A DNA stretch of 64,000 nucleotides from NCBI GenBank assembly GCA_006247105.1, contig CM016927.1, forward strand, positions 1,232,711 through 1,296,710. The letters are read 5' to 3'. Below the pieces are notes generated by a model. That model did no database searches. It was not told where the DNA came from and saw nothing but the letters and a program-made list of their open reading frames with translations. The stretch comes from Giardia muris (lineage: Eukaryota; Fornicata; Diplomonadida; Hexamitidae). Shown piece by piece: positions 1,447 through 62,118 of this stretch; positions within the stretch are counted from its first letter, which is position 1, and each line of letters starts with the position of its first letter. The position numbers and the translations under genes are program-made.

Positions 1447-1447
1447 G

Positions 1448-3314: not shown

Positions 3315-3373
3315 AGGGGCCCGTTGACCCTTTTACTCGCTTACTCGCGCGGGGCTGCCCCATCCCACATATC

Positions 3374-12796: not shown

Positions 12797-13169
12797 CAAG
12801 AATTTGGTTATTTCGTTTGCTATTGAACCCTTTCTACTGACATATAGACTGCGAGATCTTACCAGATCTATAGTAATGCTGCTCACTTACCTTTCAATCG
12901 GGCTTTCACATTCTATTCGACAACTAATGTTCCGTCTGTTGAGTATTTGGCTTTACATCGCTGTAGCACTTCTCAACGTCAATATCAAGGTAGTTTGACT
13001 AGGTGCAACTGTATCCACAAGATCTATCAACATGGTGGTCTGTTATGGTTGGGAAACACGTTCTTAATGATTGTTACTGCCCATGAAGTCTTCCTTCATC
13101 AATCGGAGTTTCTAGACTCATGGGTAAGTAGATACTCTATTTGATTGACAAAACATCCTACAGACCATC
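12797..13169. other. AT-richer intergenic spacer before the variable island
   Basis: About 370 bp holding the presumed promoter of the minus-strand hypothetical gene and then AT-rich sequence up to the start of the duplicated block. Short plus-strand frames exist but have no recognisable content. A sequence GGTAAGTAGATACT near 13126 resembles GGTAAGCAATAGATACT just left of the second block copy. Confidence 0.4.
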
Positions 13170-17630: not shown

Positions 17631-17673
17631 AGGGAGCCTCAATCCGAGGAGAATTGATGTCTGATTCTCAAAA

Positions 17674-24863: not shown

Positions 24864-24891
24864 GCGGAATTTAAAAAGCTCGTCGAATTTT
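24864..24891. promoter_or_regulatory. 28-bp bidirectional promoter
   Basis: The whole gap between the divergent ATGs at 24863 (minus) and 24892 (plus). It is AT-rich compared with both genes (GGAATTTAAAAAGC, CGAATTTT), as expected for short Giardia initiator elements. Confidence 0.6.
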
Positions 24892-35918: not shown

Positions 35919-36024
35919 TAAATTTCTCGGCGATCATCCTCCATTTAAGTTTATTCTGGACTTCCCTTTGCACTATCTAGGTTGGACGGTAAGCAATAGA
36001 TACTTCCCCATAGATCACATACCA

Positions 36025-37862
36025 CCCCTCACACCCCTCGGGGACGATCCGGGTCGACCCTGCCTTCTGGGCCCAGGGGGCGTCACCGTTCTCACCAGGA
36101 CTGCCTCTCGCCGTCGTAGGACTGGCCCACTTCCTGCTGAGAGGGACAATAGCCAACAGGTCATGCTATCCGATGCACGGCTCCTTGAGGAAGCTTCTGT
36201 GTGGACGGCCTCGCGGCATCTGATGCTACGAAGTGACCAGCCATCACAAGCTCCTGGCTCAGTTCCTACACCCCCGCCTTCATTCCATGCCATGATGATT
36301 GGATTCCGTTGGTCGGCGTCCCTCGAGAAGACTCCCGTGGCAGAAATGAGAGACGCTCAAGGCCATTGAGTTCCAGTGGAGACGAGGACAAGCAGGCCGG
36401 GAGAAGCCCCTGTCTTGACGACAGGCTCTCTTCATTGAGTGTTGTAGCTGGAACAAACACGCTCGGCTCAGATGAGATCCACAGGCCTGGTATGTTGAGG
36501 AGTTCTATGACCAGGCCTTGCACAGGAGTACCCCGTCTAAGAGAGACAAGGTATGAACAGGAGCTGACGACGCTCTGGAAGTCAGACTCGATCTATCTTC
36601 ATCAATGGCCTCCTTGGAATCCCATACTGACTGGACCGAAGAGCGTAGTTGCAATGGGATGTCTGGGGAGTCCTGAAACCGTACTGTGATCCTCCTGCAC
36701 CTCGAATTCCAGGTCGACCGGACCCTCTGTGATGCAGGCGGCAGACCTGGCACCATCTTTGTCTCGGCTCCTCTTCTTTCTCGAGGAGTCACATGGTGGC
36801 ATCCCCAGAGAATCTCTTTCGAAGGGTGTCGTTCTCTACTTCCGGACCTTGTAGGGATCTTGAAGTCTTTCCTGGCCTTATGAAGTCAGTTCTTCCTACT
36901 CCCGTTCCGTCACGAGGAGCACTTCGGCAGGAGATATAGCTTGGGATGTCCTCCATCTTCACAGGAGGTTGGCATCGAAAAGAGCATGGGCTCCACTCCC
37001 ATTACCCTCTCAAGCTCCATGTTGTGGACTATCAAATCTCGTTGCCCTTCTCTCCAGTGTGCATCTTAGTCACTCACTGGCCACCATTCGCTGGTTAATG
37101 AGCCTTCAGGTCGGCATCCATCACGACCCTTCGAGGAACCGGGACGATTGGGGGACATCTGGTGCGGGGAGGATATCTTCGAGCCAGAGACGGCCCGAAG
37201 ACGTGGGTCATCGTCGCTCATACAAGGCGAGAGCGGTCCGGACGACCTCAAACTGAATACTAGGTCTACTGGGGGGCTCACCACAGGTCACTGGTGCCTC
37301 TCCACCTCCTCGAGGACCTCCCGTGCTGTCGGACGATCTTTGGGGTTCCTTGAGAGCATCCGGGAGATGAGGGCAGCAAGCTCACCCCTTCCCTCGATAA
37401 CTGGGGGCTCTTCCTTAGAGATAGCGATCTTACCGGGGAAAGGAAGCCTCCCAGTGCACATCTCATATCCCATCACTCCCAGGGCCCAGACGTCCCCACT
37501 ACATCTACTCCAGTGCAGTACTCGGGACGATCGACCGCTCCTCCGGGAGAGTAGTACCGGAGATCGACGTCCTCGAGGGCTCGATGGGGGTGAAGAACGC
37601 GAGAGCCCTCTCGTGTACGGAAGGAGGTGCGTCAGGCAACTGCAAGGCGGGGAGCTGCCTCGACCTCGGGACACTGGGGAAGGTCTGCAAGGAGTGCGCG
37701 ACCACGACCGAGGCCTCGATCGACGGGACGTGCAGCTCGACCGTCGGGAGCAACACGTGTTCCAATGGTGTCTGCACGGCATGCGACACGTCCGGGACGA
37801 AGTTTCTCTTCTACGGGGGGTGCTATGACCAGGGGTCTGTCGACAAGGGCGCTGCTCTCTGC
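36025..37862 (+). repeat. 1,838-bp duplicated block, copy 2
   Basis: Same sequence as 13170-15007. It starts about 106 bp upstream of the Nop4-like start codon and ends inside VSP cassette U1. Its left 1.26 kb (36025-37286) shows no recognisable coding content. Confidence 0.93.
37287..37494 (-). pseudogene. 3'-terminal NEK kinase fragment, second copy
   Basis: Identical to 14432-14639. It ends at the GACGTC breakpoint 89 bp before the first VSP ATG at 37584. Confidence 0.9.
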
Positions 37863-39314
37863 AAGACGGCATCGAACGGGAAGTGCTCAGAGAGGGCCAG
37901 TGGTGCGACGGGCATCTTCGTGAAGGGGAGCGAGTCCAACCCCTCAGGCCTCTACACCTGTGATGATAAGACGAACGGGGTTCCCAACTGCATGGCCTGC
38001 ACCTCCCCCGCCGCCGACAAGCCCAAGTGCAATGCGTGCAGGACGGGCTTCCTCCCGGACCAGGACAAGTCAGAATGCATCCAGTCCTCCCTCCAGCACT
38101 GCCTCCTGGTGACCGATGCTGACACCTGTCACACCTGCGAGGATGGGTACTACGTCTCCAACAAGGTCTGCGTCCCCTGCTCCTCGGGCTGTAAGGTGTG
38201 CGACTCCAGCGGCTGCTCGGAGTGCCTCGAAGGATACTACCCCACTGGCACTCCTATCACCTGCACGAAGTGTTCTGTCGAGAACTGCAGGACATGCACA
38301 GCCGATGGATGTACCGTCTGCCTCGATGGATATGCGAAGACAGGAACGGGGACCAATACAAAGTGTGTCCCGGTCGGAGGAGCGGACGTCAAGGACCCCC
38401 ACTGCCCGACCGCCTCGGCTCTCGCTCTGAACGGGACCTTTGCGATCTGCAAGGAGTGTCAAACAAGCTTCGTCCCCGTGGACGGCGTCTGCCGGTCGAG
38501 TACCACTGCCCCCGCCAGCAACGTCTGCACCTCCAATGGCAACAAGTGCACCTCCTGCAAGAACGGCTTCATGCTCTACGAGGGCGGGTGCTACTCCTCC
38601 TCCAGGGCTGCCTCCCTCGGGATCTGTGCCTCGTCCTTCCTCGTCGGAGACCAGCGGGCCTGCTCCAAGTGTAAGGCCGGGACCATCCCGATCGATGGGG
38701 CGTGTGTCGAGGTCGGGTCGGCTCTCTCGAGGGCGAACATCGAAGACGTCTGCAAGAAGAGTGACGACAGCCCCGTCGACGCCTCCTCGACGTCCTGCGA
38801 CAAGTGCGGGACGAATGGAGGAACAAACTACTTCCTCCTCAACGGGGGCTGCTACCCCGCAGGAACAAGCAATGCGGGCTCCCTTGGGAACAAGATCTGC
38901 TCAACGGCCGCCAATGGGGCCTGCATCCAGACGGCCCAGGACAGCACCTTCCTCCTCGAGGGGACCCAGCTTGTCTCCTGCTCCTCAAAGATGTCAGGAT
39001 GCGTGGCGTGCAGCGATGCCTCGACCTGCTCGAAGTGCGGGGTCGGGTATGTGGAGACGCCCTCCAGCAACGCCTGCACTCCCTGCTCCGTCGAGAACTG
39101 CGCCTCGTGCTCCGATGCCGCCACCTGCACGACCTGCCTCGACGGGTCCGCCCCCGCCGCCACCGACCCGAAGTGCAAGGCCCTCGAGGCTTCCGGCTCC
39201 AGTTCTTCCAGGCTCTCGGGGGGTGCCATTGCGGGGATCGTCATTGCCGTCCTTCTGGTGCTGGGAGGCCTCGGGGGCTTCCTCGGTTGGTGGTTCGGAT
39301 GCAGGGGGAAGTGA
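37584..39314 (+). CDS. VSP cassette U1
   Basis: 576 aa with an in-frame ATG. The first 93 residues come from the duplicated block (type a). The remainder is unlike the other cassettes in its middle (PCSSGCKVCDSSGCSECLEG, ENCRTCTADGCTVCLDG) and in the pre-membrane region (CSVENCASCSDAATC). CXXC-rich, with GGCY motifs, membrane segment and CRGK tail. No signal peptide and no AT-rich initiator, so surface expression from this copy is unlikely. Confidence 0.88.
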   Translation: MGVKNARALSCTEGGASGNCKAGSCLDLGTLGKVCKECATTTEASIDGTCSSTVGSNTCSNGVCTACDTSGTKFLFYGGCYDQGSVDKGAALCKTASNGKCSERASGATGIFVKGSESNPSGLYTCDDKTNGVPNCMACTSPAADKPKCNACRTGFLPDQDKSECIQSSLQHCLLVTDADTCHTCEDGYYVSNKVCVPCSSGCKVCDSSGCSECLEGYYPTGTPITCTKCSVENCRTCTADGCTVCLDGYAKTGTGTNTKCVPVGGADVKDPHCPTASALALNGTFAICKECQTSFVPVDGVCRSSTTAPASNVCTSNGNKCTSCKNGFMLYEGGCYSSSRAASLGICASSFLVGDQRACSKCKAGTIPIDGACVEVGSALSRANIEDVCKKSDDSPVDASSTSCDKCGTNGGTNYFLLNGGCYPAGTSNAGSLGNKICSTAANGACIQTAQDSTFLLEGTQLVSCSSKMSGCVACSDASTCSKCGVGYVETPSSNACTPCSVENCASCSDAATCTTCLDGSAPAATDPKCKALEASGSSSSRLSGGAIAGIVIAVLLVLGGLGGFLGWWFGCRGK

Positions 39315-39325
39315 GTGAATGGTGA

Positions 39326-41230
39326 AGGGGAGGGAAGAACGCGAGAGTCCTCTCGTGTACGGAAGGGACGGCATCAGGCAACTGCAAGACGGGGAGCTGC
39401 CTCGACCTCGGGACACTGGGGAAGGTCTGCAAGGAGTGCGCGACCACGACTCGAGCTGCTGAGTTCCCAATCGACGGGGAGTGCACCTCGACCAGTGGGA
39501 ATGGGTGCGTCGAGGGGAGCGGAACGTGCAGCTCGTGCGGGAATGCAGCCAACAACTTCCTCTTCTACGGGGGCTGCTACAGCACTCAGACAGCTGGAAA
39601 GGGGCAGGCTCTCTGCTCGGCGGCATCGAACGGGAAGTGCTCAGAGAGGGCTGATACTGCGACGGGCATCTTCGTGAAGGGGAGCGACTCCAACCCATCA
39701 GGCCTCTACACCTGCGACGACGAGACGAACGGGGTTCCCAACTGCAAGACCTGCACCTCCCCCGCCACCAACAAGCCGACCTGCACGGAGTGCGCCTCCG
39801 GATTCGGGCCTGTCGTGGAGAGCCTCGATGCACCAACGATCACCTCCTGCGTCAGCTGCTCATCGGACGAGAACTGCAAGAGCTGCATGCAGATCGGGAC
39901 CAGCTTCGTGTGTCTCGAGTGCAAGGATGACACTCACGTCCCCGTCAACGGGAAGTGCGTCCTCAAGGACAGTGCCTCCTCCTGCACCCCTGCCTCCAAC
40001 GCCGGGAAGTGCACGGACTGCAAGGAGGGGAGCCTCTTCTTCCACGACGGCTGCTTCAGCCCCGAGAGCCTCAAGAGCCTCGGGATCTGCCTCGAGTCCT
40101 TCTCCGTCCCGGGCTGGTCCGAGGTCCTCTGCGGTAAGTGCGGGAAGGGGCTCGCCCCCGTCGACGGGAGGTGTCTGAAGGTGGAAGGGGGGACAGCCGA
40201 TCCGACCAGCTCATGCACGACGAGCCAAGATGGAACTCAGGTCGGGGTCTGCAACTCCTGTGGGTCCTCGAACACCCACTTCCTCTTCAATGGGGGGTGC
40301 TACGACCAGTCAAAGGAGCCCGGGAGCAAGCTGTGCACGGCAATGACGACTCGGACGGCAGACGGGACCTGCTCGACCCCGACCTCCATCGCCTTCCTCA
40401 AGGACAAGAAGCTCTACCTCTGCGGGGACGCGACGAACGGGAAGGCGAACTGCAACACCTGCACCTACTCCACGTCCTTCTCCTGCACGTCCTGCCTCAA
40501 CGGATGCATGCTCTCCAACTCCTCCTGCCTCTCCTCCTTCGATGCGGACAAGACGGGCCTCTGTGCCAGGAGCAACCAGCTTCTCGTCGGGGAGGCCCTG
40601 GTGTGCAAGGAGTGCAAGAAGGGAAGTGTTCCGATCGACGGGACGTGCCTCGAGGTCAGTTCGACCATCTCGAGGACGACCACCAACGACGTCTGCAAGA
40701 AGGCCGACGGGACGACTCCTGTCGACGGGACCGCCACGAGGTGCGAGAACTGCTCGACGACCTACTTCCTCTTCGAGGGGGGCTGCTATCCTGCATCCTC
40801 GACCCCCGGGACTTCGGTCGGGAGCAAGCTGTGCTCATCGGCCTCCAATGGTCAGTGCACTACTGCTGCCAGTGGCTCCCCCTTCCCCCTCTCCAATGGC
40901 GTCTTCACCCTCTGTCCGGCCGGGTGTGGGGCCTGCACGAACGCGACCGCCTGCACATCCTGCGGTCTCGGGTACTACAACACGACCTCCGTCACCTCCT
41001 CCTCTGACTGCAAGGCCTGCCCCAGTGGCTGCACGACGTGCTCCGCCTCGGCCTGCATCACGTGCTGGGACGGGAATGCCCCGACCGACGGGAAGTGCAG
41101 TGCCGTCCCCCCCTCCAGCTCCTCGGGGCTCTCGGGGGGTGCCATTGCGGGAATCGTCATCGCCGTCCTGTTGGTGCTGGGAGGCCTCGGGGGCTTCCTC
41201 GGTTGGTGGTTCGGATGCAGGGGGAAGTGA
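39326..41230 (+). CDS. VSP cassette U2, no start codon
   Basis: 634-codon open frame, type a 5' end. The spacer reads GGGAAGAACG where U10 has GGTGAAGAACG, so the VSP frame begins after an in-frame TGA at 39323. The first candidate start is a GTG at 39674. The middle module (CASGFGPVVESLDAPTITSC) is shared with U3, U4, U9, U10 and U13. The tail is complete. Best read as a silent cassette. Confidence 0.85.
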   Translation, partial: RGGKNARVLSCTEGTASGNCKTGSCLDLGTLGKVCKECATTTRAAEFPIDGECTSTSGNGCVEGSGTCSSCGNAANNFLFYGGCYSTQTAGKGQALCSAASNGKCSERADTATGIFVKGSDSNPSGLYTCDDETNGVPNCKTCTSPATNKPTCTECASGFGPVVESLDAPTITSCVSCSSDENCKSCMQIGTSFVCLECKDDTHVPVNGKCVLKDSASSCTPASNAGKCTDCKEGSLFFHDGCFSPESLKSLGICLESFSVPGWSEVLCGKCGKGLAPVDGRCLKVEGGTADPTSSCTTSQDGTQVGVCNSCGSSNTHFLFNGGCYDQSKEPGSKLCTAMTTRTADGTCSTPTSIAFLKDKKLYLCGDATNGKANCNTCTYSTSFSCTSCLNGCMLSNSSCLSSFDADKTGLCARSNQLLVGEALVCKECKKGSVPIDGTCLEVSSTISRTTTNDVCKKADGTTPVDGTATRCENCSTTYFLFEGGCYPASSTPGTSVGSKLCSSASNGQCTTAASGSPFPLSNGVFTLCPAGCGACTNATACTSCGLGYYNTTSVTSSSDCKACPSGCTTCSASACITCWDGNAPTDGKCSAVPPSSSSGLSGGAIAGIVIAVLLVLGGLGGFLGWWFGCRGK

Positions 41231-43273
41231 GTGAATGGTGAAGGGGAGGTGAAGGCTCGAGCCACGGGAGAGTGCGATGCAAACTCAAAGTTCACCATCC
41301 CGGGGGTTGAGGGGAAGTTCTGCAAGAAGTGTTCGACTGATACTGAGGCCCCGATCAATGGGAAGTGTGGGACTCCAGTAGCAGGCACGGATCACTGCAC
41401 GTCGGATAACAATGGGGCCTGCACGGACTGCAAAGCGACCAGTAGCGGAGGAGACCTTACTTCCAGCACCTACTTCCTGTTCGAGGGAGGCTGTTATGAC
41501 CAGACACAGGGGGTTGGAAAGCAGCTCTGCAAGACGGCCACCAACGGTGTTTGTGAGACGGCAGCTGATGGTGCGATCACCTTCGTCAAGACGGATGGTA
41601 GTAATAAGAACCTCTACCTCTGTAGCGATGCGACAAACGGGGCATCGGGCTGCAGCACCTGCACCTATGCGACACCAACTCCACCTACTCCCGGCTCTCG
41701 TGCTGGAGAAGTCCTCACCTGCAACTCGTGCCTCGAGGGCTTCTACCCCAACACCACCACCACCGGTCCCGTCAACTGCACGGCCTGCACCGTCCAGAAC
41801 TGCAAGACGTGCTCCTCCTCCGCCTGCTCCGAGTGCGCCTCCGGGTTCGGGCCTGTCGTGGAGAGCCTCGATGCACCAACGATCACCTCCTGCGTCAGCT
41901 GCTCATCGGACGAGAACTGCAAGAGCTGCATGCAGATCGGGACCAGCTTCGTGTGTCTCGAGTGCAATGATGCCACTCACGTCCCCGTCAACGGGAAGTG
42001 CGTCCTCAAGGACAGTGCCTCCTCCTGCACCCCTGCCTCCAACGCCGGGAAGTGCACGGACTGCAAGGAGGGGAGCCTCTTCTTCCACGACGGCTGCTTC
42101 AGCCCCGAGAGCCTCAAGAGCCTCGGGATCTGCCTCGAGTCCTTCTCCGTCCCGGGCTGGTCTGAGGTCCTCTGCGGTAAGTGCGGGAAGGGGCTCGCCC
42201 CCGTCGACGGGAGGTGTATAAAGGTGGAAGGGGGGACGGCCGATTCGACCAGCTCATGCACGACGAGCCAAGATGGAACTCAGGTCGGGGTCTGCAACTC
42301 CTGTGGGTCCTCGAACACCCACTTCCTCTTCAACGGGGGGTGCTACAACCAGTCAAAGGAGCCCGGGAACAAGCTGTGCAGTGCAATGACGACTCGGACG
42401 GCAGACGGGACCTGCTCGACCTCGACCTCCATCGCCTTCCTCAAGGACAAGAAGCTCTACCTCTGCGGGGACGCGACGAACGGGAAGGCGAACTGCAACA
42501 CCTGCACCTACTCCACGTCCTTCTCCTGCACGTCCTGCCTCAACGGATGCATGCTCTCCAACTCCTCCTGCCTCTCCTCCTTCGATGCGGACAAGACGGG
42601 CCTCTGTGCCAGGAGCAACCAGCTTCTCGTCGGGGAGGCCCTGGTGTGCAAGGAGTGCAAGAAGGGAAGTGTTCCGATCGACGGGACGTGCCTCGAGGTC
42701 AGTTCGACCATCTCGAGGACGACCACCAACGACGTCTGCAAGAAGGCCGACGGGACGACTCCTGTCGACGGGACCGCCACGAGGTGCGAGAACTGCTCGA
42801 CGACCTACTTCCTCTTCGAGGGGGGCTGCTATCCTGCATCCTCGACCCCCGGGACTTCGGTCGGGAGCAAGCTGTGCTCATCGGCCTCCAATGGTCAGTG
42901 CACTACTGCTGCCAGTGGCTCCCCCTTCCCCCTCTCCAATGGCGTCTTCACCCTCTGTCCGGCCGGGTGTGGGGCCTGCACGAACGCGACCGCCTGCACA
43001 TCCTGCGGTCTCGGGTACTACAACACGACCTCCGTCACCTCCTCCTCTGACTGCACGGCCTGCCCCAGTGGCTGCACGACGTGCTCCGCCTCGGCCTGCA
43101 TCACGTGCTGGGACGGGAATGCCTCGACCGACGGGAAGTGCAGTGCCGTCCCCTCCTCCAGCTCCTCGGGGCTCTCGGGGGGTGCCATTGCGGGAATCGT
43201 CATTGCCGTCCTGCTGGTGCTGGGAGGCCTCGGGGGCTTCCTCGGTTGGTGGTTCGGATGCAGGGGGAAGTGA
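41231..43273 (+). CDS. VSP cassette U3, in frame with U2 after its stop
   Basis: 680 codons, longest in the array, type b 5' end. No ATG; the frame continues directly from U2 with only TGA between (K-stop-VNGEGEVKARATGEC). It shares TPTPPTPGSRAGEVLTCNSC to SSSACSEC with U7, then switches to the U2-type middle (ASGFGPVVES), a clear mosaic joint near 41833. Complete tail. Confidence 0.86.
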   Translation: MNGEGEVKARATGECDANSKFTIPGVEGKFCKKCSTDTEAPINGKCGTPVAGTDHCTSDNNGACTDCKATSSGGDLTSSTYFLFEGGCYDQTQGVGKQLCKTATNGVCETAADGAITFVKTDGSNKNLYLCSDATNGASGCSTCTYATPTPPTPGSRAGEVLTCNSCLEGFYPNTTTTGPVNCTACTVQNCKTCSSSACSECASGFGPVVESLDAPTITSCVSCSSDENCKSCMQIGTSFVCLECNDATHVPVNGKCVLKDSASSCTPASNAGKCTDCKEGSLFFHDGCFSPESLKSLGICLESFSVPGWSEVLCGKCGKGLAPVDGRCIKVEGGTADSTSSCTTSQDGTQVGVCNSCGSSNTHFLFNGGCYNQSKEPGNKLCSAMTTRTADGTCSTSTSIAFLKDKKLYLCGDATNGKANCNTCTYSTSFSCTSCLNGCMLSNSSCLSSFDADKTGLCARSNQLLVGEALVCKECKKGSVPIDGTCLEVSSTISRTTTNDVCKKADGTTPVDGTATRCENCSTTYFLFEGGCYPASSTPGTSVGSKLCSSASNGQCTTAASGSPFPLSNGVFTLCPAGCGACTNATACTSCGLGYYNTTSVTSSSDCTACPSGCTTCSASACITCWDGNASTDGKCSAVPSSSSSGLSGGAIAGIVIAVLLVLGGLGGFLGWWFGCRGK

Positions 43274-43284
43274 GTGAATGGTGA

Positions 43285-45189
43285 AGGGGAGGGAAGAACG
43301 CGAGAGTCCTCTCGTGTACGGAAGGGACGGCATCAGGCAACTGCAAGACGGGGAGCTGCCTCGACCTCGGGACACTGGGGAAGGTCTGCAAGGAGTGCGC
43401 GACCACGACTCGAGCTGCTGAGTTCCCAATCGACGGGGAGTGCACCTCGACCAGTGGGAATGGGTGCGTCGAGGGGAGCGGAACGTGCAGCTCGTGCGGG
43501 AATGCAGCCAACAACTTCCTCTTCTACGGGGGCTGCTACAGCACTCAGACAGCTGGAAAGGGGCAGGCTCTCTGCTCGGCGGCATCGAACGGGAAGTGCT
43601 CAGAGAGGGCTGATACTGCGACGGGCATCTTCGTGAAGGGGAGCGACTCCAACCCATCAGGCCTCTACACCTGCGACGACGAGACGAACGGGGTTCCCAA
43701 CTGCAAGACCTGCACCTCCCCCGCCACCAACAAGCCGACCTGCACGGAGTGCGCCTCCGGATTCGGGCCTGTCGTGGAGAGCCTCGATGCACCAACGATC
43801 ACCTCCTGCGTCAGCTGCTCATCGGACGAGAACTGCAAGAGCTGCATGCAGATCGGGACCAGCTTCGTGTGTCTCGAGTGCAATGGTACCACTCACGTCC
43901 CCGTCAACGGGAAGTGCGTCCTCAAGGACAGTGCCTCCTCCTGCACCCCTGCCTCCAACGCCGGGAAGTGCACGGACTGCAAGGAGGGGAGCCTCTTCTT
44001 CCACGACGGCTGCTTCAGCCCCGAGAGCCTCAAGAGCCTCGGGATCTGCCTCGAGTCCTTCTCCGTCCCGGGCTGGTCCGAGGTCCTCTGCGGTAAGTGC
44101 GGGAAGGGGCTCGCCCCCGTCGACGGGAGGTGTATAAAGGTGGAAGGGGGGACGGCCGATTCGACCAGCTCATGCACGACGAGCCAAGATGGAACTCAGG
44201 TCGGGGTCTGCAACTCCTGTGGGTCCTCGAACACCCACTTCCTCTTCAACGGGGGGTGCTACAACCAGTCAAAGGAGCCCGGGAACAAGCTGTGCAGTGC
44301 AATGACGACTCGGACGGCAGACGGGACCTGCTCGACCCCGACCTCCATCGCCTTCCTCAAGGACAAGAAGCTCTACCTCTGCGGGGACGCGACGAACGGG
44401 AAGGCGAACTGCAACACCTGCACCTACTCCACGTCCTTCTCCTGCACGTCCTGCCTCAACGGATGCATGCTCTCCAACTCCTCCTGCCTCTCCTCCTTCG
44501 ATGCGGACAAGACGGGCCTCTGTGCCAGGAGCAACCAGCTTCTCGTCGGGGAGGCCCTGGTGTGCAAGGAGTGCAAGAAGGGAAGTGTTCCGATCGACGG
44601 GACGTGCCTCGAGGTCAGTTCGACCATCTCGAGGACGACCACCAACGACGTCTGCAAGAAGGCCGACGGGACGACTCCTGTCGACGGGACCGCCACGAGG
44701 TGCGAGAACTGCTCGACGACCTACTTCCTCTTCGAGGGGGGCTGCTATCCTGCATCCTCGACCCCCGGGACTTCGGTCGGGAGCAAGCTGTGCTCATCGG
44801 CCTCCAATGGTCAGTGCACTACTGCTGCCAGTGGCTCCCCCTTCCCCCTCTCCAGTGGCGTCTTCACCCTCTGTCCGGCCGGTTGTGGGGCATGCTCCTC
44901 TGCCACCACCTGCACGTCCTGCGGTCTCGGGTACTACAACACGACCTCCGTCGCCTCCTCCTCTGACTGCAAGGCCTGCCCCAGTGGCTGCACGACGTGC
45001 TCCGCCTCGGCCTGCATCACGTGCTGGGACGGGAGTGCCCCGACCGACGGGAAGTGCAGTGCCGTCCCCTCCTCCAGCTCCTCGGGGCTCTCGGGGGGTG
45101 CCATTGCGGGGATCGTCATCGCCGTCCTGCTGGTGCTGGGAGGTCTCGGGGGCTTCCTCGGTTGGTGGTTCGGATGCAGGGGGAAGTGA
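43285..45189 (+). CDS. VSP cassette U4, no start codon
   Basis: 634 codons. The 5' third matches U2, the middle carries U3 alleles (RCIKVEGGTADSTSS, NQSKEPGNKLCSAM), and the 3' part (ACSSATTCTSC, TSVASSSDC) matches U13. Same out-of-frame spacer as U2, with TGA at 43282. Same length as U2. Confidence 0.85.
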   Translation, partial: RGGKNARVLSCTEGTASGNCKTGSCLDLGTLGKVCKECATTTRAAEFPIDGECTSTSGNGCVEGSGTCSSCGNAANNFLFYGGCYSTQTAGKGQALCSAASNGKCSERADTATGIFVKGSDSNPSGLYTCDDETNGVPNCKTCTSPATNKPTCTECASGFGPVVESLDAPTITSCVSCSSDENCKSCMQIGTSFVCLECNGTTHVPVNGKCVLKDSASSCTPASNAGKCTDCKEGSLFFHDGCFSPESLKSLGICLESFSVPGWSEVLCGKCGKGLAPVDGRCIKVEGGTADSTSSCTTSQDGTQVGVCNSCGSSNTHFLFNGGCYNQSKEPGNKLCSAMTTRTADGTCSTPTSIAFLKDKKLYLCGDATNGKANCNTCTYSTSFSCTSCLNGCMLSNSSCLSSFDADKTGLCARSNQLLVGEALVCKECKKGSVPIDGTCLEVSSTISRTTTNDVCKKADGTTPVDGTATRCENCSTTYFLFEGGCYPASSTPGTSVGSKLCSSASNGQCTTAASGSPFPLSSGVFTLCPAGCGACSSATTCTSCGLGYYNTTSVASSSDCKACPSGCTTCSASACITCWDGSAPTDGKCSAVPSSSSSGLSGGAIAGIVIAVLLVLGGLGGFLGWWFGCRGK

Positions 45190-45193
45190 GTGA

Positions 45194-47212: not shown

Positions 47213-47216
47213 GTGA

Positions 47217-49235: not shown

Positions 49236-49246
49236 GTGAATGGTGA

Positions 49247-51001: not shown

Positions 51002-51012
51002 GTGAATGGTGA

Positions 51013-52575: not shown

Positions 52576-52599
52576 GTGAATGGTGAAGGGGAAGGATGA

Positions 52600-54447: not shown

Positions 54448-56358
54448 GTGAATGGTGAAGGGGAGGTGAAGAACGCGAGAGACCTCACGTGTACGGAAGG
54501 GACGGCATCAGGCAACTGCAAGACGGGGAGCTGCCTCGACCTCGGGACGCTGGGAAAGGTCTGCAAGGAGTGCGCGACCGCGAACGAGGCCTCGATCGAC
54601 GGGACGTGCAGCTCGACCGTCGGGAGCAACACGTGTTCCAATGGTGTCTGCACGGCATGCGACACGTCCGGGACGAAGTTTCTCTTCTACGGGGGGTGCT
54701 ATGACCAGGGGTCTGCCGACAAGGGCGCTGCTCTCTGCAAGACGGCATCGAACGGGCAGTGCTCAAAGAGGGCTGATACTGCGACGGGCATCTTCGTGAA
54801 GGGGAGCGACTCCAACCCCTCAGGCCTCTACACCTGTGATGATAAGACGAACGGGGTTCCCAACTGCAAGACCTGCACCTCCCCCGCCGCCGACAAGCCG
54901 ACCTGCACGGAGTGCGCCTCCGGATTCGGGCCTGTCGTGGAGAGCCTCGATGCACCAACGATCACCTCCTGCGTCAACTGCTCATCGAACGAGAACTGCA
55001 AGAGCTGCATGCAGATCGGGACCAGCTTCGTGTGTCTCGAGTGCAATGCTGACACTCACGTCCCCGTCAACGGGAAGTGCGTCCTCAAGGACAGTGCCTC
55101 CTCCTGCACCCCTGCCTCCAGCGCCGGGAAGTGCACGGCCTGCAAGGAGGGGAGCCTCTTCTTCCACGACGGCTGCTTCAGCCCCGAGAGCCTCAAGAGC
55201 CTCGGGATCTGCCTCGAGTCCTTCTCCGTCCCGGGCTGGTCCGAGGTCCTCTGCGGTAAGTGCGGGAAGGGGCTCGCCCCCGTCGATGGGAGGTGTATAA
55301 AGGTGGAAGGGGGGGCCGATTCGACCAGCTCATGCACGACGAGCCAAGATGGAACTCAGGTCGGGGTCTGCAACTCCTGTGGGTCCTCGAGCACCCACTT
55401 CCTCTTCAACGGGGGGTGCTATGCCCAGTCAAAGGGGGTCGGGAACAAGCTGTGCACGGCAATGACGACTCGGACGGCAGACGGGACCTGCTCGACCCCG
55501 ACCTCCATCGCCTTCCTCAAGGACACCAAGCTCTACCTCTGCGGGGACGCGACGAACGGGAAGGCGAACTGCGACACCTGCACCTACTCCGGGTCCTTCT
55601 CCTGCACGTCCTGCCTCAACGGATGCATGCTCTCCAACTCCTCCTGCCTCTCCTCCTTCGATGCGGACAAGACGGGCCTCTGTGCCAGGAGCAACCAGCT
55701 TCTCGTCGGGGAGGCCCTGGTGTGCAAGGAGTGCAAGAAGGGAAGTGTTCCGATCGACGGGACGTGCCTCGAGGTCAGCTCGACCATCTCGAGGACGGCC
55801 ACCAACGACGTCTGCAAGAAGGCCGACGGGAAGACTCCTGTCGACGGGACCGCCACGAGGTGCGAGAACTGTTCGACTGTTGGGAGCGTCAGCTACTTCC
55901 TCTTCGAGGGGGGCTGCTACCCCACGACCACGGGCTCCGTCGGGAGCAAGCTGTGCTCATCGGCCTCCAATGGTCAGTGCACTACTGCTGCTGCTGGTTC
56001 CCCCTTCCCTCTCAATACGACCTCAGGCGTCTTCACCCTCTGTCCGGCCGGTTGTGGGGCCTGCACGAACGCGACCGCCTGCACGTCCTGCGGTCTCGGG
56101 TACTACAACACGACCTCCGTCGCCTCCTCCTCTGACTGCAAGGCCTGCCCCAGTGGCTGCACGACGTGCTCCGCCTCGGCCTGCATCACGTGCTGGGACG
56201 GGAGTGCCCCGACCGACGGGAAGTGCAGTGCCGTCCCCTCCTCCAGCTCCTCGGGGCTCTCGGGGGGTGCCATTGCGGGGATCGTCATTGCCGTCCTTCT
56301 GGTCCTGGGGGGCCTCGGGGGCTTCCTCGGTTGGTGGTTCGGATGCAGGGGGAAGTGA
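54448..56358 (+). CDS. VSP cassette U10, in frame with U9 after its stop
   Basis: 636 codons beginning GTG directly after the U9 TGA, without an ATG. It is the best-preserved type a 5' end (VKNARDLTCTEGTASGNCKTGSC). Residues ~110-560 are almost the same as U9, and the 5' end matches U1/VSP1 (SSTVGSNTCSNGVCTACDTS). Complete tail. Confidence 0.86.
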   Translation: MNGEGEVKNARDLTCTEGTASGNCKTGSCLDLGTLGKVCKECATANEASIDGTCSSTVGSNTCSNGVCTACDTSGTKFLFYGGCYDQGSADKGAALCKTASNGQCSKRADTATGIFVKGSDSNPSGLYTCDDKTNGVPNCKTCTSPAADKPTCTECASGFGPVVESLDAPTITSCVNCSSNENCKSCMQIGTSFVCLECNADTHVPVNGKCVLKDSASSCTPASSAGKCTACKEGSLFFHDGCFSPESLKSLGICLESFSVPGWSEVLCGKCGKGLAPVDGRCIKVEGGADSTSSCTTSQDGTQVGVCNSCGSSSTHFLFNGGCYAQSKGVGNKLCTAMTTRTADGTCSTPTSIAFLKDTKLYLCGDATNGKANCDTCTYSGSFSCTSCLNGCMLSNSSCLSSFDADKTGLCARSNQLLVGEALVCKECKKGSVPIDGTCLEVSSTISRTATNDVCKKADGKTPVDGTATRCENCSTVGSVSYFLFEGGCYPTTTGSVGSKLCSSASNGQCTTAAAGSPFPLNTTSGVFTLCPAGCGACTNATACTSCGLGYYNTTSVASSSDCKACPSGCTTCSASACITCWDGSAPTDGKCSAVPSSSSSGLSGGAIAGIVIAVLLVLGGLGGFLGWWFGCRGK

Positions 56359-56382
56359 GTGAATGGTGAAGGGGAAGGATGA

Positions 56383-57888
56383 GACGGGGGTGGTTCGACC
56401 TTCACCATCCCGGGGGTTCAAGGAGAGTTCTGCAAGGAGTGCAGTGACACGAGTCAGGCCCCGATCGATGGGGTGTGTGGGACTCCAGGCAGTGACTGTA
56501 CTCAGAAGTCCCCAACTGCCGATGGCACGTGTGAGTCGTGTGGGACGGGTGACTACTTCCTCTTCAACGGGGGGTGCTACGACCAGGCGTCCTCTCCCGG
56601 GAGCATTCTCTGCTCAGCGGCCAGCAGCGGTGCTTGCGGGACGGCGGCATCTGGGGCCTTCCTCAAGGACGGGAAGCTCTACCTCTGTAGCGATGCGACA
56701 AATGGAGGAAAAGAGAACTGCGGGACGTGCACCTACACGACAACAACAACTCCATCTCCAACTCCATCCAACTCCCGTGCCGGAGAAGTCTTCACCTGCA
56801 CCTCCTGCCTCCCCTCCTTCGGCCTCGACTCCTCCCAGGCCTGCGTCCCCTGCGCCCTCTCCAACTGCGGGACGTGCGGGACGAACAAGGACGTGTGCAC
56901 GGGCTGCAAGGCGGGGTTCGGGCCTGTCAAGAACGGCTCCGCCATCACGGCCTGCAACCAGTGCTCGACGGGATGCGAGAGCTGCCTCAACCTCGGCCTC
57001 GGGCTCGTCTGCGACGTGTGCTCGAAGAGCGATCAGATCCCGGTCGACGATGAGTGCGTCGACGTGAACGACAAGGTGTGCACAAAGGACCCCTCCTCCG
57101 GCTCCTGCGCCTCCTGCCTCAATGGATACATGTTCTACCACGGGGCCTGCCTCTCCCCCTACAAGGCGAGCTCGATGGGGATCTGCTCCAAGGACAACCA
57201 GTTCCTCGTCGGGGAGGCCCTCGTCTGCAAGGAGTGCAAGGTCGGGTTCGTCCCGATTGATGGGACCTGCACCCCGATCGGGGACGTCAACACGGGGACG
57301 AGAGCAGCCGGGGACAACGTCTGCATGAAGGCGGACGGGAATCCTGTCGAGAAGACCGCCACGAAGTGCGAGGCGTGCAAGAATCCGGCCGGGAGCAACA
57401 ACTACTTCTTCTTCAACGGAGGCTGCTATCCCATAACCCCCACCTCCGGGACCTCGGTCGGGAGCAAGCTGTGCCAGACGGCCGATGCCGATGGGAAGTG
57501 CACTCAGGCTGCCACCAACGCCCCCTTCCCTCTCGACACGACCTCAGGGACCTTCACCCTCTGCCCGGCCGGGTGCGGGACGTGCACCTCGAACAACAAT
57601 GCCCTCACCTGCACTGGCTGCTCCATCGGATACTACAACTCGGCCTCTGGGGGCACCTTTAACTGCACGGCCTGCCCTTCAGGATGCACGGTCTGCACGA
57701 AGGACGCCTGCACGACCTGCTGGAATGGAAGCGGCCCCGACGCCAATGGGAAGTGTCCCTCTCCCCCCTCCTCCAGCTCCTCGGGGCTCTCGGGGGGTGC
57801 CATTGCGGGGATCGTCATCGCCGTCCTGCTGGTGCTGGGAGGTCTCGGGGGCTTCCTCGGTTGGTGGTTCGGATGCAGGGGGAAGTGA
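56383..57888 (+). CDS. VSP cassette U11, no start codon
   Basis: 501 codons, the shortest complete unit, after a TGA at 56380. Type c 5' end with FTIPGVQGEFC. It then carries a U8-like GTPGSDCTQKSPTADGTC and from GFGPVKNGSAITACNQC onward is close to U5/U6. Complete tail. Confidence 0.84.
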   Translation, partial: DGGGSTFTIPGVQGEFCKECSDTSQAPIDGVCGTPGSDCTQKSPTADGTCESCGTGDYFLFNGGCYDQASSPGSILCSAASSGACGTAASGAFLKDGKLYLCSDATNGGKENCGTCTYTTTTTPSPTPSNSRAGEVFTCTSCLPSFGLDSSQACVPCALSNCGTCGTNKDVCTGCKAGFGPVKNGSAITACNQCSTGCESCLNLGLGLVCDVCSKSDQIPVDDECVDVNDKVCTKDPSSGSCASCLNGYMFYHGACLSPYKASSMGICSKDNQFLVGEALVCKECKVGFVPIDGTCTPIGDVNTGTRAAGDNVCMKADGNPVEKTATKCEACKNPAGSNNYFFFNGGCYPITPTSGTSVGSKLCQTADADGKCTQAATNAPFPLDTTSGTFTLCPAGCGTCTSNNNALTCTGCSIGYYNSASGGTFNCTACPSGCTVCTKDACTTCWNGSGPDANGKCPSPPSSSSSGLSGGAIAGIVIAVLLVLGGLGGFLGWWFGCRGK

Positions 57889-57912
57889 GTGAATGGTGAA
57901 GGGGAAGGATGA

Positions 57913-59457
57913 GACGGGGGTGGTTCGACCTTCACCATCCCGGGGGTTGATGGAGAGTTCTGCAAGAAGTGCGATGTCTCGACTAACACTGACTCCGCCC
58001 CTGTCAACGGGCTCTGTGACACTGCTGCGGCCACCACGATTGGGAATGGTGCTACTTGTGCTGATGGCGCCTGCACAGTCTGCCCAGATCCGTACTTCCT
58101 CTTCAACGGGGGGTGCTACAAGACGGACACCTCTCCCGGGAACAAGCTCTGCAAGACGGCCACCGGGGGGAAGTGCACGGCCGTCCCGGACAAGGACGCG
58201 GTCACCTTCGTCAAGAGTGACATCCTCTACCTCTGCAGTGACAGCACGAACGGGAAGGCGAACTGCGAGACCTGCACCTATGACTCGACCTTCAAGTGCA
58301 CCTCCTGTGCCAAGGACTACCTCCCCAAGGGGGACGGGAGCTGCGTCTCCTGTAGTGACACCTCCAAGTGCTCCAACTGTGCCCAGGTGAGTGCTGCCGA
58401 CACCTGCTCCGCCTGCAGCCCCGGCTTCGGCCTTGTTGACTCGACCTGCAAGGCCTGCACCATCAAGGACTGCAAGACGTGCGACACGAACGAGAAGACC
58501 TGTTCGGCCTGCCTCCCCTCCTTCGGCCCGACCTACAGCTCCTCCCTTGCCATCACGTCCTGCGACTCCTGTCCCAAGAACTGCACCTCCTGCACCAACC
58601 TCGGTCCGGGGCTCGTCTGCACCGAGTGTCCGACTGATCAGGTCCCGATCGACGGGGGGTGCGTGGATAAGAACGACAAGGTCTGCACCGACTCTTCCGG
58701 CACCTGCACGTCCTGCCTCAATGGATACGTCCCCTACCTCGAGGGATGCTACTCGACCTTCAAGGCCGCCGAGCTGGGCGTCTGTGCGAAGGAGAAGCAG
58801 TTCCTGGTCGGGAACACGACCGTCTGCTCCGAGTGCAAGCCGGGCTTCGTCCCGATCAACGGAGAATGCCTTCTGGTCGCCTCGACGAACGTGACGAGGG
58901 CGACCCAGATCTGCCAGAAGGAGGACGGAACCGCCCCCGACGCGTCCTCCACGAGGTGCGGGAAGTGCCAGGACGTGACCGGGACCCCGGCTACTCAGTT
59001 CTTCCTCCTCAACGGGGGCTGCTACAACGCCTCCACGGAGGTCGGGAAGAGCGCCTGCACCACGGCCTCTGGTGGGGTCTGCACAGCTGTCAATCCCGCC
59101 TCGGGCCTCTACCTCAATGGAACCGTCCTCGTCTCCTGCGCCCCCGGGTGCGCCACCTGCACGAGTGGGACGGACTGCACCAAGTGCCTCTCAGTGGGGT
59201 ACTACAACACTACTACTGTGACCGGCCCCTCCAACTGCACGGCCTGTCCCAGTGGGTGCACCTCCTGTCCAAGTGGGACGTGCGACCTCTGCTGGGACGG
59301 CTCCACTCCCACCAACGATGTCTGCCCCTCTCCCCCCTCCTCCAGCTCCTCGGGACTCTCGGGGGGTGCCATTGCGGGGATCGTCATCGCCGTCCTGCTG
59401 GTCCTGGGAGGCCTCGGGGGCTTCCTCGGTTGGTGGTTCGGATGCAGGGGGAAGTGA
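57913..59457 (+). CDS. VSP cassette U12, no start codon
   Basis: 514 codons after a TGA at 57910; the first in-frame GTG is at 58387. The 5' part matches U7 (STNTDSAPVNGLCDTAAATT), the next stretch matches U8 (YKTDTSPGNKLC, LYLCSDSTNGKANCETC), and the rest is U7/U8-like. Complete tail. Confidence 0.84.
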   Translation, partial: DGGGSTFTIPGVDGEFCKKCDVSTNTDSAPVNGLCDTAAATTIGNGATCADGACTVCPDPYFLFNGGCYKTDTSPGNKLCKTATGGKCTAVPDKDAVTFVKSDILYLCSDSTNGKANCETCTYDSTFKCTSCAKDYLPKGDGSCVSCSDTSKCSNCAQVSAADTCSACSPGFGLVDSTCKACTIKDCKTCDTNEKTCSACLPSFGPTYSSSLAITSCDSCPKNCTSCTNLGPGLVCTECPTDQVPIDGGCVDKNDKVCTDSSGTCTSCLNGYVPYLEGCYSTFKAAELGVCAKEKQFLVGNTTVCSECKPGFVPINGECLLVASTNVTRATQICQKEDGTAPDASSTRCGKCQDVTGTPATQFFLLNGGCYNASTEVGKSACTTASGGVCTAVNPASGLYLNGTVLVSCAPGCATCTSGTDCTKCLSVGYYNTTTVTGPSNCTACPSGCTSCPSGTCDLCWDGSTPTNDVCPSPPSSSSSGLSGGAIAGIVIAVLLVLGGLGGFLGWWFGCRGK

Positions 59458-59468
59458 GTGAATGGTGA

Positions 59469-61396
59469 AGGGGAGGGAAGAACGCGAGGGCCCTCTCGTG
59501 CACGGAAGGGACGGCATCAGGCGACTGCAAGGCGGGGAGCTGCCTCGACCTCGGGACGCTGGGGAAGGTCTGCAAGGAGTGCGCGACCGCGAACGAGGCC
59601 TCGATCGACGGGACATGCAAGGCCCCAACAGAGGCGACGGATCATTGTACGAAGGGCAACAATGGGGCCTGCACGGACTGCAAAGCGACCAGTAGTAGCA
59701 GGGACGCTTCTGCCAACACCTACTTCCTCTTCTACGGGGGGTGCTACAACCAGGCAGGAACAGAGGGCGCTGCTCTCTGCTCGGCGGCATCGAACGGGCA
59801 GTGCTCAAAGAGGGCTGATACTGCGACGGGCATCTTCGTGAAGGGGAGCGACTCCAACCCCTCAGGCCTCTACACCTGTGATGATAAGACGAACGGGGTT
59901 CCCAACTGCAAGACCTGCACCTCCCCCGCCACCAACAAGCCGACCTGCACGGAGTGCGCCTCCGGGTTCGGGCCTGTCGTGGAGAGCCTCGATGCACCAA
60001 CGATCACCTCCTGCGTCAACTGCTCATCGAACGAGAACTGCAAGAGCTGCATGCAGATCGGGACCAGCTTCGTGTGTCTCGAGTGCAAGGATGCCACTCA
60101 CGTCCCCGTCGACGGGAAGTGCGTCCTCAAGGACAGTGCCTCCTCCTGCACTCCTGCCTCCAATGCCGGGAAGTGCACGGCCTGCAAGGAGGGGAGCCTC
60201 TTCTTCCACGACGGCTGCTTCAGCCCCGAGAGCCTCAAGAGCCTCGGGATCTGCCTCGAGTCCTTCTCCGTCCCGGGCTGGTCTGAGGTCCTCTGCGGTA
60301 AGTGCGGGAAGGGGCTCGCCCCCGTCGATGGGAGGTGTCTGAAGGTGGAAGGGGGGACGGCCGATCCGACCAGCTCATGCACGACGAGCCAAAAGGACAC
60401 TCAGGTCGGGGTCTGCAACTCCTGTGGGTCCTCGAGCACCCACTTCCTCTTCAACGGGGGGTGCTACAAACAGGCAGATGGGGTCGGGAACAAGCTGTGC
60501 ACGGCAATGACGACTCGGACGGCAGACGGGACCTGCTCGACCCCGACCTCCATCGCCTTCCTCAAGGACAAGAAGCTCTATCTCTGCGGAGACGCGACGA
60601 ACGGGAAGGCGAACTGCAACACCTGCACCTACTCCACGTCTCTCTCCTGCACGTCCTGCCTCAACGGATGCATGCTCTCCAACTCCTCCTGCCTCTCCTC
60701 CTTCGATGCGGACAAGACGGGCCTCTGTGCCAGGAGCAACCAGCTTCTCGTCGGGGAGGCCCTGGTGTGCAAGGAGTGCAAGAAGGGAAGCGTTCCGATC
60801 GACGGGACGTGCCTCGAGGTCAGCTCGACCATCTCGAGGACGACCACCAACGACGTCTGCAAGAAGGCCGACGGGACGACTCCTGTCGACGGAACCGCCA
60901 CGAGGTGCGAGAACTGTTCGACTGTTGGGAGCGTCAGCTACTTCCTCTTCGAGGGGGGCTGCTATCCCACGACCACGGGCTCCGTCGGGAGCAAGCTGTG
61001 CTCATCGGCCTCCAATGGTCAGTGCTCTCAGGCTGCCAATGGCTCCCCCTTCCCCCTCTCCAGTGGCGTCTTCACCCTCTGTCCGGCCGGTTGTGGGGCA
61101 TGCTCCTCTGCCACCACCTGCACGTCCTGCGGTCTCGGGTACTACAACACGACCTCCGTCGCCTCCTCCTCTGACTGCAAGGCCTGCCCCAGTGGCTGCA
61201 CGACGTGCTCCGCCTCGGCCTGCATCACGTGCTGGGACGGGAGTGCCCCGACCGACGGGAAGTGCAGTGCCGTCCCCTCCTCCAGTTCTTCCAGGCTCTC
61301 GGGGGTGCCATTGCGGGGATCGTCATCGCCGTCCTGCTGGTGCTGGGAGGTCTCGGGGGCTTCCTCGGTTGGTGGTTCGGATGCAGGGGGAAGTGA
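59469..61396 (+). pseudogene. VSP cassette U13, frameshifted before the membrane tail
   Basis: Type a 5' end without ATG (TGA at 59466). The reading is VSP-like through SSSSSRLSG. One G is then missing from the G run (61301-61305 has five where others have six), so the frame runs into VPLRGSSSPSCW and a stop at 61398. The correct tail (AIAGIVIAVLLVL..CRGK) is still present in the next frame, ending at 61396. Confidence 0.85.
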
Positions 61397-61420
61397 GTGA
61401 ATGGTGAAGGGGAAGGATGA

Positions 61421-61936
61421 GACGGGGGTGGTTCGACCTTCACCATCCCGGGGGTTGATGGAGAGTTCTGCAAGAAGTGCAGTGACACGAGTCAGGCCCC
61501 GATCAATGGGGCTTGTGCGGATCCAAGCACTGTCTCGGATGCTACTTGTGCCAATGGTGCCTGCACAGGATGTGGAACAGGTGACTACTTCCTGTTCGAG
61601 GGAGGCTGTTATGACCAGACCAAGGCGCCTGGGAACAAGCTGTGCTCCGCCCTCCAGGATACAAAGAACGGAACCTGCAAGGCGGCTCCAACTACCGATG
61701 CCATCACCTTCGTCAAGGACAGCACCCTCTACCTCTGTAGCGATGCGACAAATGGAGGAAAAGAGAACTGCGGTACATGCACCTACGCCTCGAACGCCTT
61801 CACGTGCTCGGAGTGCCTCGAGGCCACCACTCTTCCTCCTCTTCTCCCGTCGTCTGCACGAAGTGCACCTTCCCCAACTGTGTATCCCGTCCAGACAGCA
61901 AGGACGTCTGCACGACCTGCCTCAACGGCTTCCAGG
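61421..61936 (+). pseudogene. VSP cassette U14, 3'-truncated and frameshifted
   Basis: Type c 5' end without a start. It reads normally to CSECLE, where GAGGCC replaces the expected GAGGGCC (~61820). In the shifted frame it continues SSSSSPVVCTKCTFPNC to CTTCLNGFQG, then stops resembling a VSP near 61936. The membrane segment, CRGK tail and junction element are absent. This ends the array. Confidence 0.8.
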
Positions 61937-62072: not shown

Positions 62073-62118
62073 GGAGCTTCAGTGGAAGGCTGGTGAAGTG
62101 GATGCTTGATGTCCAAAA

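What the first reader, a model, noticed from the sequence alone, without database searches (positions are those of the whole stretch)
37584..61936. A 14-unit archive of VSP cassettes lacking signal peptides and promoters
Every unit keeps a VSP body but none has a signal peptide. Gaps between units are a few bases. Only U1, U5 and U6 have an in-frame ATG near their start. Proteins made from them could not enter the secretory route in the normal way. The arrangement fits donor cassettes for segmental gene conversion into an expression copy, as in some other antigenically variable pathogens, and differs from the usual picture of Giardia VSPs as independently transcribed full-length genes.
Basis: partly seen in the sequence, partly recalled or inferred. 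Interest (0 to 1): 0.9.

Follow-up and report, generated by a model that had tools for sequence, protein, structure and literature searches.

The report
Silent surface-antigen cassettes at chromosome end
The end of this Giardia chromosome carries a row of surface-antigen genes that have lost their front ends; such rows have been described before, and sequence comparison suggests that stretches of them are exchanged with complete antigen genes elsewhere.

Summary
At 37.5-61.9 kb lie 14 head-to-tail VSP units: 13 with the GCRGK tail, one truncated. None shows a signal peptide (SP); gaps before U2-U12 are 0-24 nt. The window is the exact end of its contig; sizes match Giardia muris chromosome 3. 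The array and the donor idea are already in print: Xu et al. 2020 (untranscribed SP-less arrays at chromosome ends) and Adam et al. 2010 (recombination cassettes, G. lamblia). What I add: (1) Of 83 array-internal units fetched, 76 of 76 lying over 4.5 kb from a contig end are open; 4 of 7 nearer ones are broken, probably in part by consensus errors. (2) Five of eight SP-bearing VSPs share exact 200-412 bp tracts with SP-less units (window U5/U6 268 bp, U8 358 bp). (3) One promoter-SP-leader locus on chromosome 2 is assembled in three versions with a matching 5.1-kb flank but different bodies from codon 38-40 on; one body shares its last 786 bases exactly with a single SP-less unit. Of 83 array-internal units, 56 begin at that codon. 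This resembles the Pneumocystis UCS/CRJE switch. Transcription, direction of exchange and switching during infection are not shown.

The parts
37510..37595 (+). Leader element at the head of U1 (no SP in front; antisense NEK-kinase-like sequence upstream, by reading the translation)
   Evidence: (98% match to the leader of the SP-bearing chromosome-2 gene, query 90-175)
37596..39314 (+). U1 body, begins right after the leader's last codon (K|NAR class)
39315..41230 (+). U2 (K|NAR class), open frame 634 aa, no SP
41231..43273 (+). U3 (K|AR class), 680 aa; its 3' two thirds resemble U2/U4, its 5' part resembles other units (mosaic)
43274..45189 (+). U4 (K|NAR class), 634 aa
45190..47212 (+). U5 (K|AR class), 672 aa; shares 200-268 bp exact tracts with SP-bearing VSPs on chromosomes 1 and 2
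47213..49235 (+). U6, near-duplicate of U5 (200 of 200 in all ten 200-bp segments compared)
49236..51001 (+). U7 (K|AR class), 584 aa
51002..52575 (+). U8 (K|AR class), 520 aa; lies between the two blocks collinear with the chromosome-4 array, where it has no counterpart; 358 bp exact tract with the SP-bearing chromosome-2 gene
52576..54447 (+). U9 (starts GGGSTFTIPG class), 615 aa
54448..56358 (+). U10 (K|NAR class), 636 aa
56359..57888 (+). U11 (GGGSTFTIPG class), 501 aa
57889..59457 (+). U12 (GGGSTFTIPG class), 514 aa; 144 bp exact tract with an SP-bearing chromosome-1 VSP, not beyond every shuffle
59458..61396 (+). U13 (K|NAR class); frame broken near its 3' end; its tail is 2.6 kb from the contig end, so the break may be a consensus error
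61397..61936 (+). U14, truncated unit at the array's telomere-side edge (no tail)
43735..51135 (+). Block collinear with the chromosome-4 left-end array (98.4%)
52443..59713 (+). Block collinear with the chromosome-4 left-end array up to that contig's first base (99.7%)
14655..14740 (+). Second leader copy in the window, at the head of the solitary unit
14741..16276 (+). Solitary SP-less VSP unit (S0); 5' part like U1, 3' part different
36017..37879 (+). Copy of 13160-15024 (99.6%): kinase-like sequence, leader and the first ~280 bp of body, shared by U1 and S0, ending abruptly inside the body

Best explanation
The array is a silent, subtelomeric reservoir of VSP bodies in Giardia muris. Each unit holds a body and a tail but no promoter or SP; bodies or body segments pass by homologous recombination into the few loci that have a promoter and SP. 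Shown here: the anatomy; open frames; mosaic structure; long exact tracts shared between SP-less units and SP-bearing genes; and one promoter-SP-leader locus (chromosome 2 right end) assembled in three versions that share flank, promoter, SP and leader and carry different bodies from codon 38-40 on. Inferred: that window units act as donors rather than recipients; that the chromosome-2 locus is an expression site; that homology at the leader end (5') and the conserved tail (3') guides the exchange; and that this produces antigenic switching.
For: Untranscribed state and exchange reported by Xu et al. 2020 (PMC7641422, passages and sections 6 and 9 read). Open frames: 79 of 83 array-internal units fetched, 76 of 76 whose tail is over 4.5 kb from a contig end. 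0 nonsense among 138 youngest changes, 3.9 expected. dN/dS between array units 0.57 and 0.61 in the 10-20% and 20-30% divergence bins (235 and 126 pairs), SP-bearing genes 0.55 and 0.60 (3 and 8 pairs). Exact tracts longer than any of 2000 shuffles: U5 with C1_2762958 (268 bp, shuffle maximum 167), U8 with C2_2371815 (358, 89), a chromosome-1 array unit with C4_959922 (400, 189). Chromosome-2 locus: flank listed as 100% in C2, C6 and C7 over 2090 and 2999 bp; divergence starts 111-118 nt after the ATG; C2 and C7 read 553 and 566 aa to the GCRGK stop; the C7 body is 98.1% an SP-less C2 unit and shares its last 786 bases exactly with that unit alone, next best of 111 units 96. 56 of 83 array-internal units begin at that codon.
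Against: Tracts do not give direction, and the 11 pairs tested were picked. No SP-bearing/array-internal pair with over 350 aligned codons is closer than 9.7%, so no whole window unit sits in an SP-bearing gene fetched; three of eight SP-bearing genes share no tract of 200 bp (125, 160 and 78 bp at most). Youngest substitutions in array units are close to neutral (90 nonsynonymous, 48 synonymous, 0.76 of neutral; 0.82 with the stricter rule) and less constrained than in SP-bearing genes (0.43, 36 changes). Array units are looser than SP-bearing genes at 30-50% divergence (0.67 against 0.57) and in the bins below 10%, where SP-bearing genes give one pair each. The chromosome-2 versions could be ordinary allelic differences between homologues. 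C6, the third version, has a broken frame. No RNA data were available, and the main group of SP-bearing VSPs (15 loci) lacks this leader.
Confidence: 0.7

Rival explanations
1. The units are leftovers: 5'-truncated tandem duplicates of old VSP genes, kept similar and open by recent unequal crossing-over and telomere exchange, with no role in making antigens.
For: Near-neutral private changes. Arrays are shuffled between chromosome ends (chromosome 3 and chromosome 4 share 7.4 and 7.3 kb at 98.4% and 99.7%, with U8 only on chromosome 3). Some solitary units are short or broken (82, 132 and 385 aa among 28 head or solitary tails, plus one cut by the fetched edge). Adam et al. 2010 name 'remains of discarded vsp genes' as the alternative.
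Against: No broken frame among the 76 array-internal units fetched whose tail is over 4.5 kb from a contig end. Exact tracts are shared with SP-bearing genes. One SP-bearing gene carries a body that is 98% an SP-less unit.
Confidence: 0.2
2. Units are expressed on their own by unusual means (read-through transcripts, internal starts, spliced-on SP exons).
For: U5 and U6 have an in-frame ATG in the spacer, and 20 of 80 array-internal units with a frame over 1 kb have an ATG in its first 30 codons.
Against: Xu et al. report essentially no psiVSP transcription in three life stages and only 3 cis- and 5 trans-introns in the genome. Gaps of 0-24 nt leave little room for a promoter. The spacer ATG is part of a constant 3' sequence and no SP follows it.
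Confidence: 0.03
3. The array, or the alternative versions of the chromosome-2 locus, are assembly artefacts of repetitive DNA.
For: The window ends at the contig end. One-base indels cluster in the last ~3.5 kb of the C4 contig, and the four broken array-internal units all end 1.8-3.4 kb from a contig end. The body in C6 is gap-rich against its relatives.
Against: 13 regular tails, 12 of them with open frames; units differ from each other; the published assembly used PacBio plus Illumina data. The three chromosome-2 versions share 5.1 kb of flank with no fourth match listed.
Confidence: 0.05

Closest known systems
G. muris psiVSP linear arrays (Xu et al. 2020, PMC7641422)
   Same: SP-less, tandem, telomere-adjacent, tails toward the terminus, GCRGK tail; contig sizes match (1,296,710 and 1,289,658 bp here; 1.297 and 1.290 Mbp there). 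This is almost certainly one of their arrays. They also note intact VSPs directly beside psiVSPs.
   Different: A shared leader element and one SP-leader locus with alternative bodies were not found in the parts of the main text read (the words 'leader', 'haplotype' and 'alternative' occur 0 times). Supplements were not read.
G. lamblia vsp linear arrays (Adam et al. 2010, PMC2996952)
   Same: Arrays with short gaps; downstream members lack the initiator; cassette-for-recombination hypothesis stated.
   Different: G. lamblia arrays are shorter (up to 10), not mainly telomeric, and 99 of 164 members have complete sequences.
Pneumocystis msg-I genes with the UCS expression site and the CRJE junction (PMC5676039, passages read)
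   Same: Silent subtelomeric bodies without SP or promoter; a locus supplying promoter and SP; bodies joined in frame at a short conserved element; different bodies found at that locus in one sample.
   Different: Here the full ~88-bp leader was seen only on head or solitary units (17 of 17 sites with both flanks), array-internal units keep just its last codons, most SP-bearing VSPs are independent loci without the leader, and no expression evidence exists.
Trypanosoma brucei silent VSG arrays (recalled; named as a parallel by Xu et al.)
   Same: Large subtelomeric silent reservoir, mosaic gene formation.
   Different: T. brucei uses dedicated telomeric expression sites with their own flanking repeats; none was looked for here.

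Membership tests
Giardia VSP family (PF03302) | Cysteine-rich body with a conserved membrane anchor and a short cytoplasmic tail (GCRGK in G. muris) | tested here: met
   13 of 14 units have the tail; 2 of 2 array units scanned match PF03302 over cut-off
Giardia VSP family (complete, expressible VSP) | N-terminal signal peptide | tested here: not met
   No SP-like start in U1-U13 by hydropathy; 8 SP-bearing genes found elsewhere with the same measure
G. muris psiVSP linear array (Xu et al. 2020) | More than 3 SP-less VSP units in tandem, telomere-adjacent, tails toward the terminus | tested here: met
   14 units; the window ends at base 1,296,710 of 1,296,710; all + strand. The telomere itself is not on this contig
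G. muris psiVSP linear array (Xu et al. 2020) | Not transcribed | not testable with these tools
   Reported in the paper for essentially all psiVSPs; no RNA reads here
UCS/CRJE-type switch (Pneumocystis) | One locus with promoter and SP that exists with different bodies | tested here: met
   C2, C6 and C7 versions with matching flank and SP-leader but different bodies; whether these are homologues or cell-to-cell variants is open
[quoted passage not shown]
   Full leader at 40 listed places, a lower bound, on head or solitary units where seen; 56 of 83 array-internal units begin at the same codon, 26 begin further in, 1 unclassed
UCS/CRJE-type switch (Pneumocystis) | Mutually exclusive expression from that locus | not testable with these tools
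   No expression data

The most novel reading that the evidence does not exclude
G. muris has a UCS-like expression site: a single subtelomeric promoter-SP-leader on chromosome 2 whose body is exchanged in frame at the leader's last codon, with the SP-less arrays (this window included) as the body library. Part of Giardia antigenic variation would then be recombinational rather than only epigenetic, convergent with Pneumocystis.
Probability: 0.4. Interest if true: 0.8.

Novelty: already known. Interest (0 to 1): 0.5.

Why it matters
Giardia VSP switching is generally taught as epigenetic choice among full-length genes, while the purpose of the many SP-less VSPs was left open as 'reservoir or remains' (Adam et al. 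2010). Open frames in silent units, exact tracts in SP-bearing genes, and one SP locus assembled with several bodies make that question testable with existing raw reads: count which bodies follow the chromosome-2 leader in single molecules.

Tried and rejected
Triplet recombination scan: 334 of 672 triplets reached the permutation floor. It has no good negative control and fires for distant triplets, so I did not use it; I rely on exact tracts. The tract shuffle test (11 pairs chosen) ignores differences in conservation along the gene. Two pairs were not beyond every shuffle (C2_588846 with U11, p 0.004; C1_841027 with U12, p 0.0015), and two were only barely so (C2_588846 with U5, 200 bp against a shuffle maximum of 185; C4_959922 with U9, 55 against 53).

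Nonsense count along a minimum spanning tree (127 expected, 0 seen; 68 edges used, 10 left out): not used as proof, since only open units were entered and most differences may predate the array or come by conversion.

Frame decay as evidence of pseudogene status: rejected for the array-internal units. The broken ones (4 of 83) are 4 of the 7 whose tails lie within 4.5 kb of a contig end, and the C4 end, compared with its chromosome-3 copy, shows eight one-base indels but one substitution over the same stretch. Three of those 7 are open, so contig ends do not always break frames. One unit far from an end, the last found in the chromosome-1 right array, has three one-base deletions close together that leave its frame open; 6 private indels were found in all. 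Among solitary or head units one private change of 103 is a stop.

One search used a wrong tail offset by one base; one search replaces it. Telomere repeats were listed only for small contigs (the first 100 of 360 matches shown), so distance from the array to the true telomere is unknown.
Full report
What the window is. Its five large contigs are 2,823,333, 2,398,647, 1,296,710, 1,289,658 and 1,134,337 bases in 9,737,486 bases and 52 contigs. The published Giardia muris genome has five large contigs in 9.8 Mbp (59 contigs), two of them 1.297 and 1.290 Mbp (Xu et al. 2020, PMC7641422, section 6 read), and G. muris VSPs end in GCRGK (section 9), as here. I infer G. muris. The window is bases 1,232,711-1,296,710 of the third contig, that is its exact end.

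The observation. It is confirmed. Thirteen tails and one truncated unit lie on one strand, tails toward the contig end. Gaps between U2-U12 and the stop before them are 0-24 nt. U1-U12 are open end to end; U13 is broken; U14 lacks its 3' part. U1-U13 show no SP by a hydropathy rule. Only U1, U5 and U6 have an ATG near the start, and in U5 and U6 it belongs to the constant spacer that follows the tails. A further SP-less unit at 14.6-16.3 kb shares U1's front end: 1,865 bp at 99.6%, ending abruptly inside the body.

What is already in print. Xu et al. [quoted passage not shown] Adam et al. 2010 (PMC2996952, passages and section 15 read) had proposed for G. lamblia arrays that downstream members serve as cassettes for recombination, or else are discarded remains. 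The finding as given is therefore known, hypothesis included.

Frames. I fetched parts of all five large contigs: 111 tails, of at least 245 in the genome. Of 83 array-internal units 79 are open across the whole body: 76 of 76 whose tail is over 4.5 kb from a contig end, and 3 of 7 nearer ones. The four broken ones end 1.8-3.4 kb from a contig end. Comparing the chromosome-4 end with its near-identical chromosome-3 copy, eight one-base indels sit in the last ~3.5 kb with one substitution there. That pattern fits consensus error better than decay; it was tested for that end only, so U13's break is doubtful rather than explained. Outside arrays decay does occur: among 28 head or solitary tails, three have frames of only 82, 132 and 385 aa, and a fourth is cut by the edge of the stretch fetched.

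Selection. I looked at the youngest changes, private to one unit, by an alignment-free rule: 90 nonsynonymous, 48 synonymous, 0 nonsense, against 95.5, 38.5 and 3.9 expected if neutral (with the stricter rule 67, 31 and 0 against 69.1, 26.1 and 2.7). The synonymous excess is marginal (one-sided p 0.047) and the lack of stops weak (p 0.02). Older differences are constrained about as in SP-bearing genes at 10-30% divergence (0.57 and 0.61 against 0.55 and 0.60) but looser at 30-50% (0.67 against 0.57) and, on one SP pair each, at 6-10% (0.57 against 0.47) and 1-3% (0.52 against 0.19). Young changes thus look nearly neutral and old ones filtered. This fits units that are judged only when their sequence reaches an expressed gene, but also units that descend recently from expressed genes.

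Exchange. Eight SP-bearing genes were found among the stretches fetched and compared with all other units fetched. Five of the eight share an exact tract of 200-412 bp with an SP-less unit; the other three reach 160, 125 and 78 bp (the last in the conserved tail). C4_959922 is like other SP-bearing genes in its first ~600 bases; further on it shares 400 identical bases with a chromosome-1 array unit, where the best other SP-bearing gene matches only 61 and 82 of 120. U5 and U6 share 268 identical bases with C1_2762958 and 200 each with C1_1965656 and C2_588846; U8 shares 358 with the chromosome-2 SP gene. Run lengths beat all 2000 shuffles for 9 of 11 pairs tested, two of these narrowly. Direction cannot be read from this. 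Within the window, units are mosaics of one another, and the array shares two blocks with the chromosome-4 left end (98.4% and 99.7%), separated by U8, which is missing there.

A candidate switch site. The SP-bearing gene at the head of the chromosome-2 right-end array begins with an SP and an ~88-bp leader ending in codon 37. The leader is listed at 40 places, 95-100% identical (a lower bound: 40 of 58 candidates scored), while promoter plus SP occur at three of these: C2, C6 and C7. In 17 sites with both flanks, all heading an array or a solitary unit, the leader follows four main upstream contexts plus one other and precedes four body types, in ten combinations; the names of the upstream contexts (ankyrin-like, NEK-kinase-like antisense) are my reading of the translation, not a search. 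A 72-bp core differs by 4.6% on average between these 17 sites. The 5.1 kb before the SP are listed as 100% identical in C2, C6 and C7 (C6 scores slightly lower and is one base longer, so at least one difference) with no fourth match. After the ATG the three run identical for 111-118 bases and then differ. C2 and C7 read through to the GCRGK stop (553 and 566 aa); C6 has another body type with a broken frame. The C7 body is 98.1% identical to an SP-less array unit of C2 (26 mismatches in 1,564 aligned bases and one 3-base gap, all in the 5' half) but 85% to the C2 SP body. Its last 786 bases are exactly those of that unit; no other of the 111 units shares more than 96. A flank almost without change next to bodies 15% apart means recombination, not mutation. 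Of 83 array-internal units 56 begin at the codon right after the leader's end, 26 begin further in, and 1 is unclassed.

Reading. The likeliest account is a silent reservoir whose bodies are cut to the same 5' border at which a promoter-SP-leader can be joined, and whose conserved tails give homology at the other side. Shown: anatomy, exchange, alternative bodies. Inferred: donation, expression, switching. The nearest parallel is the Pneumocystis msg-I system (PMC5676039, passages read), where donors lack the SP, a single UCS supplies promoter and SP, and a 33-bp junction element joins them. I do not file the window as a member: the full leader was not seen on array-internal units, the main group of SP-bearing VSPs (15 loci found by their own promoter-SP) lacks it, and exclusive expression is untested.

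Limits. No RNA and no raw reads were available; supplements of the papers were not read; fewer than half of the tails were fetched; SP calls are heuristic; C6 and C7 may be homologues of chromosome 2 (Giardia carries several copies of each chromosome, recalled) rather than products of switching. Literature searches: of which the listings and abstract starts were seen; a leader or switch site in G. muris was not seen in these listings, nor by word search of the Xu et al. main text.

Noticed in passing
window 43735-51135 and 52443-59713: Collinear with the left-end array of contig C4 (98.4% and 99.7%), with U8 present only here: exchange or duplication between two chromosome ends.
   Followed up: yes
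window 13160-15024 and 36017-37879: 1.9-kb duplication (99.6%) carrying kinase-like antisense sequence, the leader and the first part of a VSP body, joined to two different 3' parts.
   Followed up: partly
C4 bases 1-3500; broken units also near the ends of C2 and C3: One-base indels cluster at the C4 contig end; pseudogenes near contig ends of this assembly may be consensus errors.
   Followed up: partly
window 62110-63798 and 17665-19839: Ankyrin-repeat genes follow both the array and the solitary VSP unit (Pfam Ank_2), the same order twice.
   Followed up: no
window 5310-12059: 2250-aa open frame with a UBR-box zinc finger (PF02207).
   Followed up: no
window 21579-25013 (- strand): 1145-aa open frame with a C-terminal protein kinase domain (PF00069).
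   Followed up: no
L062, L063, L060, L024 (contigs C7, C6, C2): One promoter-SP-leader locus in three assembled versions with different VSP bodies and, judging by the tail positions, apparently different array lengths behind it.
   Followed up: partly
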